From Candidatus Eiseniibacteriota bacterium (GTDB taxonomy: Bacteria > JAFGKV01): DNA of 6,084 nucleotides. A program made the position numbers and the translations under genes. Each line of letters opens with the position of its first letter. Positions within the stretch are counted from its first letter, which is position 1. Below the pieces are notes generated by a model that saw only the letters and a program-made list of their open reading frames with translations, had not been told where the DNA came from and did no database searches. The stretch is taken from contig JALOPK010000204.1 of assembly GCA_025453925.1 (NCBI GenBank), positions 1 through 6,084 on the forward strand, read 5' to 3'. This document shows positions 1-5,644 of this stretch, one piece after another.

Positions 1-1356
1 GCCCACGATCTCGGCATCGAGGTCGTCCTCGACCTGGTGATCAACCACACCTCGCTCCAGCACCCATTCATGAAGGATGCGCTGCGGTACGGCGAACACT
101 CGGTCTATCGCGACTACTACCTCTGGAATCCCGACGGCACGTTTCAAAGCTACTGGGCGGACCTGCCGAACCTCAACTACGGCAACTCGGAGGTCTGGGA
201 CTACTTCATCCGCGCCTCACAGTACTGGGTCGAGGTTTTCGACATTGACGGCTATCGCTGCGATGTCGCCTGGGGTATTCAGGAGCGTACACCCGGGTTC
301 TGGCAGGCGTGGCGGGATTCCCTCAAGGCCACCAAGGACAATGTGCTGCTCCTGGCCGAAGCCTCGATCGAGGACGCAACGCTCTTCGACGGCCGGTTCG
401 ACGCCGCCTACGACTGGGGCTACATGAACCACCTGAAGGGGCTGATGCGGGGAGTCGAGACGCCGCAAGACATCCATGGACACGTGGCGTCATTCCCCGG
501 CACGGGCAGCGGACCGCTCGCCCTTCGGTTCATCGAGAACCACGACGAGACCCGATTCCTCGCGGAGTTCGGCCCTGAGCGTACGAAGACGGCAGCAGCG
601 ATTCTCTACGCGTCTCCCGGGCTTCCGCTGCTGTATGCCGGCCAGGAGGTGGGCGAACTCACCCAGCGGTACTACATCAACTGGAGCGACCCCCACCACC
701 TGGAGCCCCTCTATCGGGCACTGGGCGCCATTCGAGAGCGGATGACCTGTCTGCAGCGCGGCGCATACCGGTGGGTGACCAACACCAACTCCGCCAATGT
801 TTACTGCTTCGCCCGCGACACCGCCGAACAGCGGATCTTCGTGGCGGCCAACTGCCGCGCATTCGCCCAGGCGGTGCAACTCACCCTCCCGGTCGATGCG
901 TGGGGTTTGAGTCCCGGAGAAGACTGGGTGGTGTCGAACCTCCTGACGGGCGAGACGGAGGTAGTGACGACGGAAGGGCTGGCCTCGCTCTCACTGACGC
1001 TCGACCCGTATGAGGTCATCCTCGCCGCAGTTGCGGACAGCGCCGTGGTGGGCACCGAACCCATGCCCGAACCGGCCGCGCTCCGCCTGGAACTGATGCC
1101 TCCGGTCCCCAACCCTGCCCGAGGAGCGACGATGGTGTCATTCACTCTCCCGCGGCCGGATGTTCCGACGTTGGAGCTGTGGGATATGGCGGGTCGCCGG
1201 CACGGGCATTTCGAGCCGGGTCGTCCCCTGGCGGCCGGAATGCATTCGCTCTTGTGGAGCGTGGATGGTCTCGGTGGCGTGAGGCCGGGCGCCTACCTCA
1301 TGGTGCTCCAGGCGGGCGATGAGCGGCGGACTCGTCCGTTGATCATCCTTCCCTGA
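1..1356 (+). CDS. GH13 alpha-amylase-family glycoside hydrolase with C-terminal sorting-type domain (5' truncated)
   Basis: Hydrolyses or rearranges alpha-glucosidic bonds; the exact specificity cannot be read. The frame is open from the first base, so the start lies upstream. Numbering from the first codon, the four GH13 signature regions appear in order: region I DLVINH (11-16); the MPDLN-like LPNLN (55-59); region II GYRCDVA (84-90) with the presumed nucleophile Asp88 and Arg86; region III LLAEAS with acid/base Glu120; region IV ENHDE with Asp182. All three catalytic carboxylates are therefore present. A beta-rich domain C follows the barrel. Residues about 362-451 form a separate domain starting PPVPNP and ending PGAYLMVLQAG...LIILP, the pattern of FlgD-Ig-like or T9SS type A C-terminal domains, which suggests export and possibly surface attachment. 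The missing 5' part should hold a signal peptide and the start of the barrel. The GTG at nt 37 lies inside region I and is not a real start. Family call very sure; substrate unknown. Confidence 0.95.
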   Translation, partial: AHDLGIEVVLDLVINHTSLQHPFMKDALRYGEHSVYRDYYLWNPDGTFQSYWADLPNLNYGNSEVWDYFIRASQYWVEVFDIDGYRCDVAWGIQERTPGFWQAWRDSLKATKDNVLLLAEASIEDATLFDGRFDAAYDWGYMNHLKGLMRGVETPQDIHGHVASFPGTGSGPLALRFIENHDETRFLAEFGPERTKTAAAILYASPGLPLLYAGQEVGELTQRYYINWSDPHHLEPLYRALGAIRERMTCLQRGAYRWVTNTNSANVYCFARDTAEQRIFVAANCRAFAQAVQLTLPVDAWGLSPGEDWVVSNLLTGETEVVTTEGLASLSLTLDPYEVILAAVADSAVVGTEPMPEPAALRLELMPPVPNPARGATMVSFTLPRPDVPTLELWDMAGRRHGHFEPGRPLAAGMHSLLWSVDGLGGVRPGAYLMVLQAGDERRTRPLIILP

Positions 1357-1577: not shown

Positions 1578-3110
1578 ATGCCGCGCCGCGCCACCATCGG
1601 GGATCGCCGTCAGTTTGGCTGCCGCGCCGCGGTGCTCCTGGCGATGGCGGCGGGCGCGACGTTCGTGCCAGTCGGCCACGCCTGCACCATCGGGGTCGCC
1701 TCCGGCCGGGCGACGTCGGACGGAAGGCCTCTGCTATGGAAGGTCCGCGACCAGGGGGAGTACCCCGACAACCAGGTGATCTGGAACGACAACCCCGCCA
1801 ACCCCTATCACTTCATCGCGGTCGCCAATGCGGGGGATACCCTTGCATGGATGGGAGTGAACGAGGCGGGCTTCGCCATCGTGAACTCCAACTCCCTCGA
1901 CCTGGTCGGCAGGGCGGACTTCGGCAATGGCTCTCTCATGCATCATGCGCTGGGACACTGTGCCACCGTCGACGAGTTCTCGCGTCTGCTCGACAGCACC
2001 AGCGCATCCGGCATGCGCGACGTGCACGCCTGCTACGGCGTGATCGACGCCGGCGGCGCCGCGTGGATGTTCGAGGTGGAAGACACCTCGTTCTGGGGAT
2101 ACGACGCGGATGAGGCGGCCGAGGTCGTGGACGGCGTCATCATCCGCACCAACTTCTCCATGGCCGGCGGGGGCGCCAACGGGATGGCGCGCTACCTCCG
2201 ATCCGTCGCGCTGATCGGGGACTTCTGCGCCGGTGACAGTCTCAACTATCGCAGCCTCCTCACCTACCACGCGCGCGACTTCTCCGACGCCAACAGCGAG
2301 CCTATCCCGGTTCCTTATCCCGGGCAGTGGAACCAGAACGTCCCCTATGGCTACTTCTGGACCCATCTGAGCATCTGTCGCGAGGGTTCGGTCTCCGGGG
2401 CGGTATTCCGGGGGGTCGAGCCCGGCCAGATGCCGTGGCAGACGACGATGTGGTCGCTGCTGGGCCAGCCCGCGTCCGCGATCGCGGTGCCGATATGGCC
2501 CGTGGGGAGCCCGCCGTCCGCCTTGGCTGGCGCACCCACCGCTCCCCTGTGCGACACGGCGAACCTCATCCGCGACCTGCTGTTCGATTGTGCCTATGAC
2601 GACTACCTCGATTCCTACAAACTGCGGACCGAGACGGGCCGCGGGCTGTGGGGGCTCATTTTCCCGGTCGAGGAGTCGCTTTTCGACGCCGCCGACCAGC
2701 TCGATGCCGCATGGCGCCTTCGGCGCTCCTCGGTTGCCGACCCCGCCGCGGCCTCCTCGATGCTCGCGGAACAGGCGCTGCTGTGTCTGGAGGACGCCTT
2801 TGCCGCCCTTGGTGCCGCCGAGCCCGTTGATGACCTGTGCGCGGAGCACACGGACGGCGGAATGATGATCACGTGGGAGCCCGTGACTCGAAGTGTCGCG
2901 GGCACTCCTCTCGCTGCAACCGAGTACGAGTTGGCGTGTGCGAACACTCCCGGCCCATCCTCCGGTGGCGAGCCTCGGACGGCAACGACTGAGCCCCGGT
3001 GTGTGATCCGGCCCGCCCCTCTCTCCGGATTCTTTTGCCGGGTCACCGCCCGGTCGAATGCCTCATCATCCATTGGCCCCTGGGTGTGGGTGTGCCCTCT
3101 TGGTGAGTAG
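1578..3110 (+). CDS. Exported Ntn-hydrolase, C45/acyltransferase-like, with fibronectin-III-like tail
   Basis: A 510-residue predicted cysteine-nucleophile Ntn-hydrolase, probably cleaving an amide bond in a small N-acyl compound or peptide outside the cytoplasm; substrate unknown. Residues 1-35 look like a signal peptide: Arg-rich start, hydrophobic AAVLLAMAAGATFV core, then VGHA followed by Cys36. Cys36 opens the motif CTIGVASGRATSDGRPLLWK and is followed by an Arg57-Asp58 pair, GVNEAGFAIVNSNS (93-106, Asn95 and Asn103) and RTNF (190-193). This is the pattern of the C45/AAT, C69 and choloylglycine-hydrolase relatives, in which the Cys is the N-terminal residue of the mature enzyme. Residues about 417-510 are beta-rich, begin near an ITWEPV stretch and resemble a divergent fibronectin III domain. 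The start is supported by a purine-rich ribosome binding site 3 nt upstream. Neighbours are 221 bp upstream and 207 bp downstream, so it may be a single transcript. Superfamily fairly sure; exact family (C45 against C69) less so. Confidence 0.8.
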   Translation: MPRRATIGDRRQFGCRAAVLLAMAAGATFVPVGHACTIGVASGRATSDGRPLLWKVRDQGEYPDNQVIWNDNPANPYHFIAVANAGDTLAWMGVNEAGFAIVNSNSLDLVGRADFGNGSLMHHALGHCATVDEFSRLLDSTSASGMRDVHACYGVIDAGGAAWMFEVEDTSFWGYDADEAAEVVDGVIIRTNFSMAGGGANGMARYLRSVALIGDFCAGDSLNYRSLLTYHARDFSDANSEPIPVPYPGQWNQNVPYGYFWTHLSICREGSVSGAVFRGVEPGQMPWQTTMWSLLGQPASAIAVPIWPVGSPPSALAGAPTAPLCDTANLIRDLLFDCAYDDYLDSYKLRTETGRGLWGLIFPVEESLFDAADQLDAAWRLRRSSVADPAAASSMLAEQALLCLEDAFAALGAAEPVDDLCAEHTDGGMMITWEPVTRSVAGTPLAATEYELACANTPGPSSGGEPRTATTEPRCVIRPAPLSGFFCRVTARSNASSSIGPWVWVCPLGE

Positions 3111-3164
3111 CGATCTCGCCGGGCTGCCCGGGGATCTCTCAGCACTCACTCCCATGTGTCATTC

Positions 3165-3284
3165 CCGTACCCATACCCGCACACGTGTACGTACCTGTCC
3201 CCGTACACGTACCCATACCCGTACACGTGTACGTACTTGTTCCCGTACACGTACCCGTACCCGTACTCGTTCCCATACCCCTTC
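3165..3284. repeat. Degenerate CCGTAC hexamer array with 42-bp higher-order period
   Basis: Twenty consecutive hexamers of consensus CCGTAC can be laid out without a gap. Position 4 is T in 19 of 20 units; positions 2 and 6 are C in 18 of 20. Seven hexamers make a 42-bp unit: 3177-3218 and 3219-3260 match at 38 of 42 positions. There is a perfect 14-bp palindrome CGTACACGTGTACG at 3220-3233 and two 17-bp strictly alternating purine-pyrimidine runs (3178-3194 and 3220-3236). No stop codon occurs in any of the six frames, so an ORF caller will extend a gene through it as Tyr-Pro, Val-Pro or Arg-Thr repeats. I read it as non-coding repeat DNA in the spacer before the PNGase F-like gene. Confidence 0.9.
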
Positions 3285-3317
3285 CGAACTCCTCTCTCCC
3301 TGGTCCTTGGAGTCATG

Positions 3318-4676
3318 ATGAAGCTACACGCTTGTGTCCTCGTTTTCGCGGGAGTGATGCTGACCGTCCTGCCAGCCTCCGCATCCGGGCTCCGCCCAGA
3401 TACGACCTGGGTGGTGACCTTCGACCACGATTTCTACAACTGGGCTGACCCCCATATCCAGACCTTTCAGCTTCCACCCGATTCGTTGATGTGGGAGAAA
3501 ATCCTGCTCTACTACAAGATCCAGTGCCCGCCGCTCCCCGGCGATTGCGACCCGTGGGACCGACTGGGCCACATCCGGGTCGTGACCACCGACACATCCG
3601 GCACCGAAGTCCATACCGAAATCGCCCGCATCGTGACCCCGTACGACATCACCGGCGGTACGCGCCCCGACTCGTGCATCTGGGAGCTTGACGTCAGCGA
3701 CTACGAATCGCTCTTGCACGACAGCGTGACGCTCCGCCATCAGATCACGACGTGGATCGGGGGCAACAAGGGCTGGATCGTGACGGTCACGTTCGCGTTC
3801 ATCTCGGGCGCGACACCCCTCGAGCCGTTCCAGGTCACGAACCTGTGGACCCACGAATACTTGGTCTTCGGAGATCCCGACAACCCAATCGAGTCCTTCC
3901 TGCAGCCCGTGGCGGCGCCGATACCGCCCGAGGCACAGGGGGCGAAAGTCCGCGCCATCACCACCGGCCACGGTCAGGGCAACACGGGCAATGCCGCCGA
4001 GTTCTCCAACAAATGGCATGAGGTCAGCGTCGGGGCCGAAGTCTACAGTCACAATCTGTGGCGAAACGACTGCAACCTGAATGAGTGCAGCCCTCAAGGC
4101 GGCACCTGGACCTATGCGCGCGCCGGCTGGTGCCCGGGCGACAAGGTGATCCCGTGGGACGTGGACGTATGGCACGCCGTGACCCCTGGAACTTCAGTAT
4201 CCATCGACTACAACATCCAGCCGTACATCAACTACTGCCGGCCCACGAACCCGGATTGCCGGGATGGCGTCACCTGCACCGATTGTGACTACAACTACAC
4301 GGGGCACACCGAGCCAAACTACTGCCTCCACGCGCAACTCATCCTCTATCGCGAGCGCATGATGCACCTGTCGGGCACACGATCAGCCAACGGCGTGCTT
4401 CTCTCCTGGCCGGCCTGGCCGGGAGCGGCGGCCTACTGGGTGTTCGGCGAGGCCAATACCCCGTACTTCGAGCCGGTGCTGACGCCGCCCCATCCCAACA
4501 GACTCGCCGTGCTCGATTCGGACGTCACAAACTGGGACGCCATCGGAGGAGCGGGCGATCCGCTCAACAACTGGACCTACGTGGTCTATGCCGTTGACGA
4601 CGCGGGGTTGGTCTTGGGCAAGTCCACCCGCGTGGGAGAACATGACTTCGCAGGGGAGATCCCCGGCGGGAGGTGA
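3318..4676 (+). CDS. Secreted PNGase F-like peptide-N-glycosidase with Cys-rich insertion and fibronectin-III-like tail
   Basis: Predicted to cut the amide bond between Asn and the first GlcNAc of N-glycans on exported or foreign glycoproteins. The 452-residue protein opens with a signal peptide (1 to about 22, ending LPASA-S). The N-terminal PNGase F domain has CPPLPGDCDPWDR (70-82), matching CPNKTCDEWDR of Elizabethkingia PNGase F; Asp81 equals catalytic Asp60 and Cys70/Cys77 equal its Cys51/Cys56. RIVTPY (104-109) and LDVSDYESLL (124-133) also align. The second domain has AEF with Glu228 at the position of Glu206, and YARAGWCPG (266-274) matching DRAGWCPG. The position of Glu118 is Thr144, and the Cys pair flanking Glu206 is absent. 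Residues 305-336 are a Cys-rich insertion; about 350-452 form a fibronectin-III-like domain (VLLSWPAWPGAAAYWVFG). GGAG at 3309-3312 lies 5 nt before this ATG; the adjacent ATG at 3315 is the alternative. An in-frame upstream extension into the hexamer array was rejected. Family sure; activity inferred. Confidence 0.9.
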   Translation: MKLHACVLVFAGVMLTVLPASASGLRPDTTWVVTFDHDFYNWADPHIQTFQLPPDSLMWEKILLYYKIQCPPLPGDCDPWDRLGHIRVVTTDTSGTEVHTEIARIVTPYDITGGTRPDSCIWELDVSDYESLLHDSVTLRHQITTWIGGNKGWIVTVTFAFISGATPLEPFQVTNLWTHEYLVFGDPDNPIESFLQPVAAPIPPEAQGAKVRAITTGHGQGNTGNAAEFSNKWHEVSVGAEVYSHNLWRNDCNLNECSPQGGTWTYARAGWCPGDKVIPWDVDVWHAVTPGTSVSIDYNIQPYINYCRPTNPDCRDGVTCTDCDYNYTGHTEPNYCLHAQLILYRERMMHLSGTRSANGVLLSWPAWPGAAAYWVFGEANTPYFEPVLTPPHPNRLAVLDSDVTNWDAIGGAGDPLNNWTYVVYAVDDAGLVLGKSTRVGEHDFAGEIPGGR

Positions 4677-4723: not shown

Positions 4724-4771
4724 CTGGCCATTCATCGTGTGGTCAGTGACCCTCACCTCAAGGAGGATTCG

Positions 4772-5644
4772 ATGCGTGCACTTGCTGTTGTGTTCGTGAT
4801 TGCCCTCGCTTTCCCTGCACTGGCGTGGGAGAAGTCGGCGGATCTCGGCCTGACCTTCAACCAGACGGCCTACAGCAACTCATGGACGGGCGGTGAATCC
4901 GGCGCCATGACGTGGGCATTCACGGGTAACTTCGCGGCACAGAAGCAGATGAGCCCCAAGGTCCACTGGGGCAACCAGCTCAAGCTCCAGTTTGGACAGA
5001 CCCACAATCAGGCCACCGCGGCAGACGGCACCAAGTCGTGGGAGTCTCCCAAGAAGTCATCGGACCGGATCTTCCTGGAGAGCATCGCCAAGCTGACGCT
5101 GGGCGCGGCGGTGGATCCGTATGCGGCATTTGCGTTCGAGAGCCAGTTCCTGGATGCGAGCGTGCCGGCGGTGAAGCGTTTCCTCAATCCGATGCTCCTC
5201 ACCGAGTCGGTTGGCGCGGGGCGCACGCTCATCAAGAACGAGAAAACGGAACTGGTCTCCCGGTTGGGCTTCGCGCTGAGGGAACGATTCGATCGGGTTG
5301 TTGTCTCCGAGGTGCCCGAGAAGACCGACATGGAGACCACAACGGACGGCGGCATCGAGTGGGTGACCGACTTCAGCCACACCTTCGGGTCGAATGCAAA
5401 GTACGTCTCGAAGCTGCGTGCATTCCAGGCCTTGTTCAGCAGTGCCGCCGATGATCTCGAAGGCCTTCCCAACGAGGACTACTGGAAGACCGCCGACCTG
5501 GCGTGGGAGAACACCCTGTCTGCGAGTGTCGCGAAGTACCTCCAGTTCTCGCTCTTCACCGAGCTTCTCTACGACAAGGAACTCGACCTCCGCGGCCGCT
5601 TCCGCGAGGTTCTGGGCATCGGCCTGGCCTACAAGCTTTTCTGA
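4772..5644 (+). CDS. DUF3078-like outer-membrane beta-barrel protein
   Basis: A 290-residue exported protein of unknown function, probably an outer-membrane beta-barrel. The signal peptide is clear: MRALAVVFVIALAFPALA, cleaved before Trp19. The mature start, with LGLTFNQTAYSNSWTGGESG (about 25-44), resembles the conserved N-terminus of the DUF3078 family (NQ...S.NW..GGE), best known from Bacteroidota. KSSDRIFLESIAKLTLG follows in the expected place. Alternating hydrophobic and polar strands run throughout, and the chain ends in LGIGLAYKLF, whose terminal Phe fits the signal recognised by the BAM machinery. The ATG at 4772 is chosen because AAGGAGG (4760-4766) lies 5 nt upstream; an in-frame GTG at 4739 has no such site and would bury the signal peptide. 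The gene lies 95 bp after the PNGase F-like gene and could be read from that transcript or from its own weak promoter. Barrel call fairly sure; DUF assignment from memory of the family pattern. Confidence 0.75.
   Translation: MRALAVVFVIALAFPALAWEKSADLGLTFNQTAYSNSWTGGESGAMTWAFTGNFAAQKQMSPKVHWGNQLKLQFGQTHNQATAADGTKSWESPKKSSDRIFLESIAKLTLGAAVDPYAAFAFESQFLDASVPAVKRFLNPMLLTESVGAGRTLIKNEKTELVSRLGFALRERFDRVVVSEVPEKTDMETTTDGGIEWVTDFSHTFGSNAKYVSKLRAFQALFSSAADDLEGLPNEDYWKTADLAWENTLSASVAKYLQFSLFTELLYDKELDLRGRFREVLGIGLAYKLF

What the first reader, a model, noticed from the sequence alone, without database searches (positions are those of the whole stretch)
3318..4360. Divergent PNGase F homologue keeps Asp60 and Glu206 but lacks Glu118 and one disulfide
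Aligned by eye with remembered Elizabethkingia PNGase F, the catalytic Asp60 (Asp81 here) and Glu206 (Glu228) are conserved with their WDR and AGWCPG surroundings. Glu118 is replaced by Thr144 in the ITTW stretch, and both Cys204 and Cys208 are lost together (Ala226, Ser230). Paired loss of a disulfide suggests a functional, drifted branch rather than a decaying gene, and the Glu118 change may alter rate or glycan preference.
Basis: partly seen in the sequence, partly recalled or inferred. Interest (0 to 1): 0.6.

Follow-up and report, generated by a model that had tools for sequence, protein, structure and literature searches.

The report
Sugar-removing enzyme with altered pocket
This is a secreted bacterial enzyme of the PNGase F family, predicted to cut N-linked sugar chains off proteins; one active-site residue differs from the textbook enzyme, but that position is known to vary in working relatives and probably tunes which sugar chains fit.

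Summary
Asp60 is Asp81, Glu206 is Glu228, Glu118 is Thr144, and Cys204/Cys208 are Ala226/Ser230; the other two disulfide pairs are kept. I found a subfamily of about 20 relatives in uncultured bacterial phyla. In it Asp81 and Glu228 are invariant. Position 118 is Glu in 15, Thr in 3, Asp in 1, Gly in 1. The 204/208 pair is either Cys/Cys (6) or Ala/Ser (14), never mixed, so "paired loss" is the common state and no mark of this gene. The window keeps all 61 columns invariant in 15 relatives, so it is not decaying. Absence of Glu118 is already known in active enzymes: Asp in Bacteroides group 1, Gly in type II, and by my alignment Ala in fish Ngly2. Published work says Glu118 blocks core alpha-1,3-fucose. 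Thr144 comes with Gln142 in place of the usual Tyr116, so the likeliest meaning is a roomier pocket at O3 of the first GlcNAc. No assay was possible.

The parts
3318..4676 (+). PNGase F-superfamily peptide:N-glycosidase gene, 452 aa (ATG at 3318, in-frame ATG also at 3315; GGAG at 3309-3312)
3318..3386 (+). predicted signal peptide (residues 1-23, MKLHACVLVFAGVMLTVLPASAS)
   Evidence: sequence shows a short basic start, a hydrophobic core and an ASAS end; helix 2-17 in the model; no dedicated predictor was run
3399..4358 (+). catalytic double jelly-roll, residues 28-347
3555..3563 (+). W80-D81-R82 = Trp59-Asp60-Arg61 of PNGase F
3741..3743 (+). Gln142 (CAG) at the Tyr116 position
3747..3749 (+). 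Thr144 (ACG) at the Glu118 position
3969..3971 (+). His218, where PNGase F has Trp191; His is the usual residue of the superfamily
   Evidence: PMC12381499
3993..4007 (+). A226-A227-E228-F229-S230 = Cys204-Ala-Glu206-Trp-Cys208
4236..4286 (+). subfamily cysteine cluster C307, C314, C320, C323 (CRPTNPDCRDGVTCTDC)
   Evidence: (invariant in alignment A2)
4353..4673 (+). C-terminal about 107 aa, fibronectin III-like by eye, in place of the PNPFNP sorting domain of most relatives
   Evidence: low model confidence; no Pfam match

Best explanation
The gene encodes a secreted peptide:N-glycosidase of the PNGase F superfamily, from a subfamily of uncultured bacterial phyla that I found no characterised member of. 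It hydrolyses the GlcNAc-Asn bond using Asp81 (= Asp60) with Glu228 (= Glu206); this step is inferred from homology and from mutants of relatives. Position 118 is a specificity position: Tyr116+Glu118, usual in the subfamily, is Gln142+Thr144 here. That should open the space at O3 of the Asn-linked GlcNAc and let core alpha-1,3-fucosylated (plant, algal or invertebrate type) glycans in, perhaps at some cost in rate. The missing 204-208 disulfide is one of two ordinary states of the loop carrying Glu206.
For: Fold and sequence. Asp81, Glu228, His218, Trp80 and Arg82 are invariant in the subfamily, and Glu206 is present in all 58 rows surveyed, which include the window twice and some repeated records. 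Zebrafish Ngly2, a proven PNGase whose Asp and Glu mutants are dead (PMC12753239), has Ala at the 118 position in the profile alignment. Glu118 blocks core alpha-1,3-fucose in type I enzymes, and Gly380 with Glu418/419 replaces it in type II (PMC9522356, which prints both numbers); the 39-residue spacing between the aligned Gly and the NVMEM Glu in the PNGF-II chain reproduces G380/E419, which confirms the column. Six further superfamily enzymes were described as having open space under the chitobiose and activity in a substrate screen (PMC12381499). In the subfamily every Glu118 goes with Tyr116 and the Asp with Phe, while the Thr and Gly rows have Gln, Ala, Ser or Gln. No decay.
Against: No member of the subfamily has been assayed, as far as I could find. 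The 116/118 coupling rests on three or four changes in the best tree and cannot reach significance. No compensating acid could be assigned: loop 178-180 carries acids in relatives with and without Glu118. In the characterised type II precedents the replacing residue is Gly, not Thr.
Confidence: 0.6

Rival explanations
1. It is a working PNGase of ordinary type I range; Thr144 is near-neutral, and another residue or water fills the Glu118 role, so core alpha-1,3-fucose is still excluded.
For: Position 118 varies (E, D, T, G, A, N, Q, S) across the superfamily; acids lie in the neighbouring loop, for example Glu180 here and Asp at 178 in L019/L020.
Against: The adjacent Tyr116 also changes to a small or polar residue whenever the acid is lost to Thr or Gly in the subfamily, which points to a remodelled pocket.
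Confidence: 0.22
2. The protein kept the fold but has lost or greatly reduced PNGase activity and now serves as a glycan-binding protein.
For: Glu118 is one of three acidic active-site residues in PNGase F (established knowledge); it is absent here.
Against: Asp81, Glu228, Trp80, Arg82 and His218 are all kept, with 61 of 61 conserved columns; Ngly2 and type II enzymes work without Glu118 (PMC12753239, PMC9522356).
Confidence: 0.1
3. The gene is decaying: Glu118 and the disulfide were lost by drift because the same genome has a second, type II PNGase gene.
For: A type II PNGase gene is on contig C148 of the same genome; the two other genomes held of the phylum have no PF09113 match.
Against: Open frame of 452 codons, all conserved columns kept, codon-position pattern of selection, and the same Thr and Ala/Ser states in distant relatives.
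Confidence: 0.05

Closest known systems
PNGase F (Elizabethkingia meningoseptica; 1pgs, 1pnf, 3pms), type I
   Same: Double jelly-roll fold (Z 28.5); Asp60, Glu206, Trp59, Arg61, Trp120 and two of three disulfides kept
   Different: About 22-25% identity; Thr for Glu118, Gln for Tyr116, Ala/Ser for Cys204/208, His for Trp191; extra cysteine cluster and C-terminal domain
PNGase F-II and Bacteroides group 2 PNGases (4r4x, 7zgn), type II
   Same: Same fold (Z 25.1); Glu118 absent; no Cys pair around Glu206 in the aligned sequences
   Different: Gly at 118 plus Glu419; N-terminal bowl-like domain; the window has Thr, no assigned compensating Glu and no such domain. The paralogue on C148 is the type II member of this genome (E=1e-114)
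Ngly2 acid PNGase of fish (9lwg)
   Same: Z 25.7; catalytic Asp and Glu; no Glu118 (Ala in alignment); His in the GHG motif
   Different: Has a protease-associated domain and homodimer (PMC12753239); has Cys around the Glu (CGEFC); about 24% identity
Close relatives in MAGs L017 (Holophagae), L018 (Cloacimonetes), L019 (KSB1), L027 (Delongbacteria) and others
   Same: 48-62% identity over the catalytic domain, same cysteine cluster, same invariant active site
   Different: Most have Glu118; nearly all carry a PNPFNP/FlgD-like sorting tail that the window protein lacks

Membership tests
PNGase F superfamily (PF09113/PF09112) | Two adjacent eight-stranded jelly rolls | tested here: met
   AF2 model, pLDDT mostly 80-95 over the catalytic domain with some low loops, Z 28.5 and rmsd 2.4 over 283 residues to 3pms
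PNGase F superfamily (PF09113/PF09112) | Catalytic Asp60 in W-D-R and Glu206 | tested here: met
   Asp81 and Glu228
PNGase F superfamily (PF09113/PF09112) | C-terminal domain over the Pfam cut-off | tested here: met
   PF09113 67 bits, cut-off 25
PNGase F superfamily (PF09113/PF09112) | N-terminal domain over the Pfam cut-off | tested here: inconclusive
   PF09112 20.7 bits, cut-off 22.4; the region nevertheless aligns with 1pgs at E=1e-21 and folds alike
PNGase F superfamily (PF09113/PF09112) | N-glycan release activity | not testable with these tools
   needs the purified protein
Type I PNGase (Glu or Asp at 118) | Acidic residue at 118 that blocks core alpha-1,3-fucose | tested here: not met
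   Thr144
Type II PNGase (PNGF-II) | Gly at 118 with Glu419 in the NVMEM loop | tested here: not met
   Thr144; the aligned loop reads NLWTHEY
Type II PNGase (PNGF-II) | N-terminal bowl-like domain | tested here: not met
   signal peptide leads directly into the catalytic domain

The most novel reading that the evidence does not exclude
The window and the L019/L020 proteins show a third natural solution at the 118 position (Thr with a non-aromatic residue at 116, no compensating Glu), giving an N-glycanase with a new glycan preference in a subfamily that has never been assayed.
Probability: 0.3. Interest if true: 0.45.

Novelty: new member of a known kind. Interest (0 to 1): 0.27.

Why it matters
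PNGases are the working tool for releasing N-glycans, and enzymes that accept core alpha-1,3-fucose are wanted for plant and invertebrate samples. A natural series with Glu, Asp, Thr or Gly at one position, on an otherwise constant active site, is a ready set for testing how position 118 (with 116) sets fucose tolerance. It also shows N-glycan release genes in uncultured phyla, where they probably serve feeding on eukaryotic glycoproteins (inference).

Tried and rejected
Sliding the alignment to place a Glu at 118: rejected, the whole subfamily fixes the register and most relatives have Glu there. A compensating acid like Glu419 of type II: loop 178-180 was examined, but acids occur there with and without Glu118, so inconclusive. 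Thr118 as one inherited event: the best tree separates the window from L019/L020, but a single clade is not rejected (AU p 0.12). Statistical test of 116/118 coupling: too few independent changes. Conserved neighbours or a glycan-use operon: none found around the relatives. Viral contigs: no relative. Contamination of the contig: flanking genes match the genus mate at 68-82% and GC3 is uniform. Mutant activities of PNGase F (E118Q and so on): no open paper found.

Full report
What is there. The start has a GGAG five bases upstream of the ATG at 3318 (another in-frame ATG is at 3315) and a signal-peptide-like leader. Pfam finds N-glycanase_C at 2e-18 and N-glycanase_N just under its cut-off (20.7 against 22.4 bits). 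phmmer finds PNGase F structures at 1e-21.

Checking the residues. In the phmmer alignment and in a profile alignment (E=8e-42) the mapping is Asp60 to Asp81, Glu118 to Thr144, Glu206 to Glu228, Cys204 to Ala226 and Cys208 to Ser230. The 51-56 and 231-252 cysteine pairs are kept as C70/C77 and C252/C272. The predicted structure superposes on PNGase F with Z 28.5, rmsd 2.4 over 283 residues, then on Ngly2 (25.7) and PNGF-II (25.1); folds outside the superfamily start near Z 9, led by peptidylglycine monooxygenase.

Relatives. A scan of species genomes found eleven close relatives (48-62% identity) in MAGs labelled Holophagae, Cloacimonetes, KSB1, Delongbacteria and unnamed bacteria; genome searches added more. 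Some loci are the same protein met twice (L029=L018, L030=L012, L031=window; L056 and L057 appear to repeat L023 and L025). About twenty distinct members remain. Across them position 118 is Glu in 15, Thr in 3 (window, L019, L020), Asp in 1 (L024) and Gly in 1 (L027). Positions 204/208 are Cys/Cys in 6 and Ala/Ser in 14, never mixed. The window retains all 61 columns that are invariant in the 15 others of the main set. So the two oddities of the finding are natural, repeated states, and the gene is intact.

The coupled position. Two residues before 118, on the same strand, PNGase F has Tyr116. In the subfamily all Glu rows have Tyr and the Asp row has Phe; the Thr and Gly rows have Gln, Ala, Ser or Gln. 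On the tree this is three or four events, all in the same direction, which is too few for a test. The inference is that the wall of the pocket near the first GlcNAc is remodelled as a unit.

What is known of position 118. Glu118 in PNGase F blocks a core alpha-1,3-fucose; Bacteroides group 1 enzymes have Asp and behave as type I; type II enzymes have Gly380, a fucose pocket, and a Glu (418 or 419; the paper prints both) that takes over the coordinating role (PMC9522356). The 39-residue spacing of the aligned Gly and the NVMEM Glu in the PNGF-II chain reproduces 380 and 419, an independent check of the column. Ngly2, shown active and dependent on the matching Asp and Glu (PMC12753239), has Ala there in the alignment. 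Six enzymes from other parts of the superfamily have open space in this region, and activity was found in a substrate screen (PMC12381499). That paper also notes that a His-plus-Glu pair is usual and that PNGase F, with Trp, is the exception; the window has the usual His218.

Setting in the genome. The phylum has only three genomes held; the two others have no PF09113 match. The flanking genes, a C45-like hydrolase and a DUF3078 protein, are 68% and 82% identical in the genus mate, but on different contigs there, with no trace of the PNGase gene in the stretches read. GC3 is even across the window. The same genome has a second PNGase gene on contig C148, 5' cut by the contig end, which is a type II enzyme by sequence (PNGF-II E=1e-114; Gly at 118 and the matching Glu present).

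Verdict. Observation confirmed. The reading as a functional PNGase F-type gene with a changed substrate pocket is reasonable; the reading of the disulfide as a telling paired loss is not. It is a new member of a known superfamily in a subfamily for which I found no assay. Shown here: homology, register, conservation and predicted fold. Inferred: activity, and tolerance of core alpha-1,3-fucose.

Noticed in passing
G000 contig C148:2-1168 (L004): A second PNGase gene of the same genome, type II by sequence (E=1e-114 to PNGF-II, Gly at 118 and NVLEM Glu), cut at its 5' end by the contig edge.
   Followed up: yes
window 3164-3280: Intergenic tandem array of CCCGTA-like 6-mers (42-bp higher unit, 2.5 copies) directly upstream of the PNGase gene; similar stretches on a few other contigs (C257, C405).
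   Followed up: partly
window 1578-3110: 510-aa protein with a weak match to C45 autoproteolytic acyltransferases/hydrolases (NF040521, under its cut-off) and CV2077 3gvz; possible Cys-nucleophile Ntn hydrolase beside the PNGase gene, 68% identical in the genus mate.
   Followed up: partly
window 4236-4286 and relatives L009-L027: Subfamily cysteine cluster C-x6-C-x5-C-x2-C followed by YNxTGHTxP, absent from PNGase F; could be extra disulfides or a metal site.
   Followed up: no
window 1-1356: 5'-open GH13 alpha-amylase-like gene with a C-terminal PNP-type, weakly T9SS-like sorting tail, which the PNGase of the window lacks.
   Followed up: no
window 4739-5644: DUF3078/DUF481-like protein, probably an outer-membrane beta barrel, kept in all three genomes of the phylum.
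   Followed up: no
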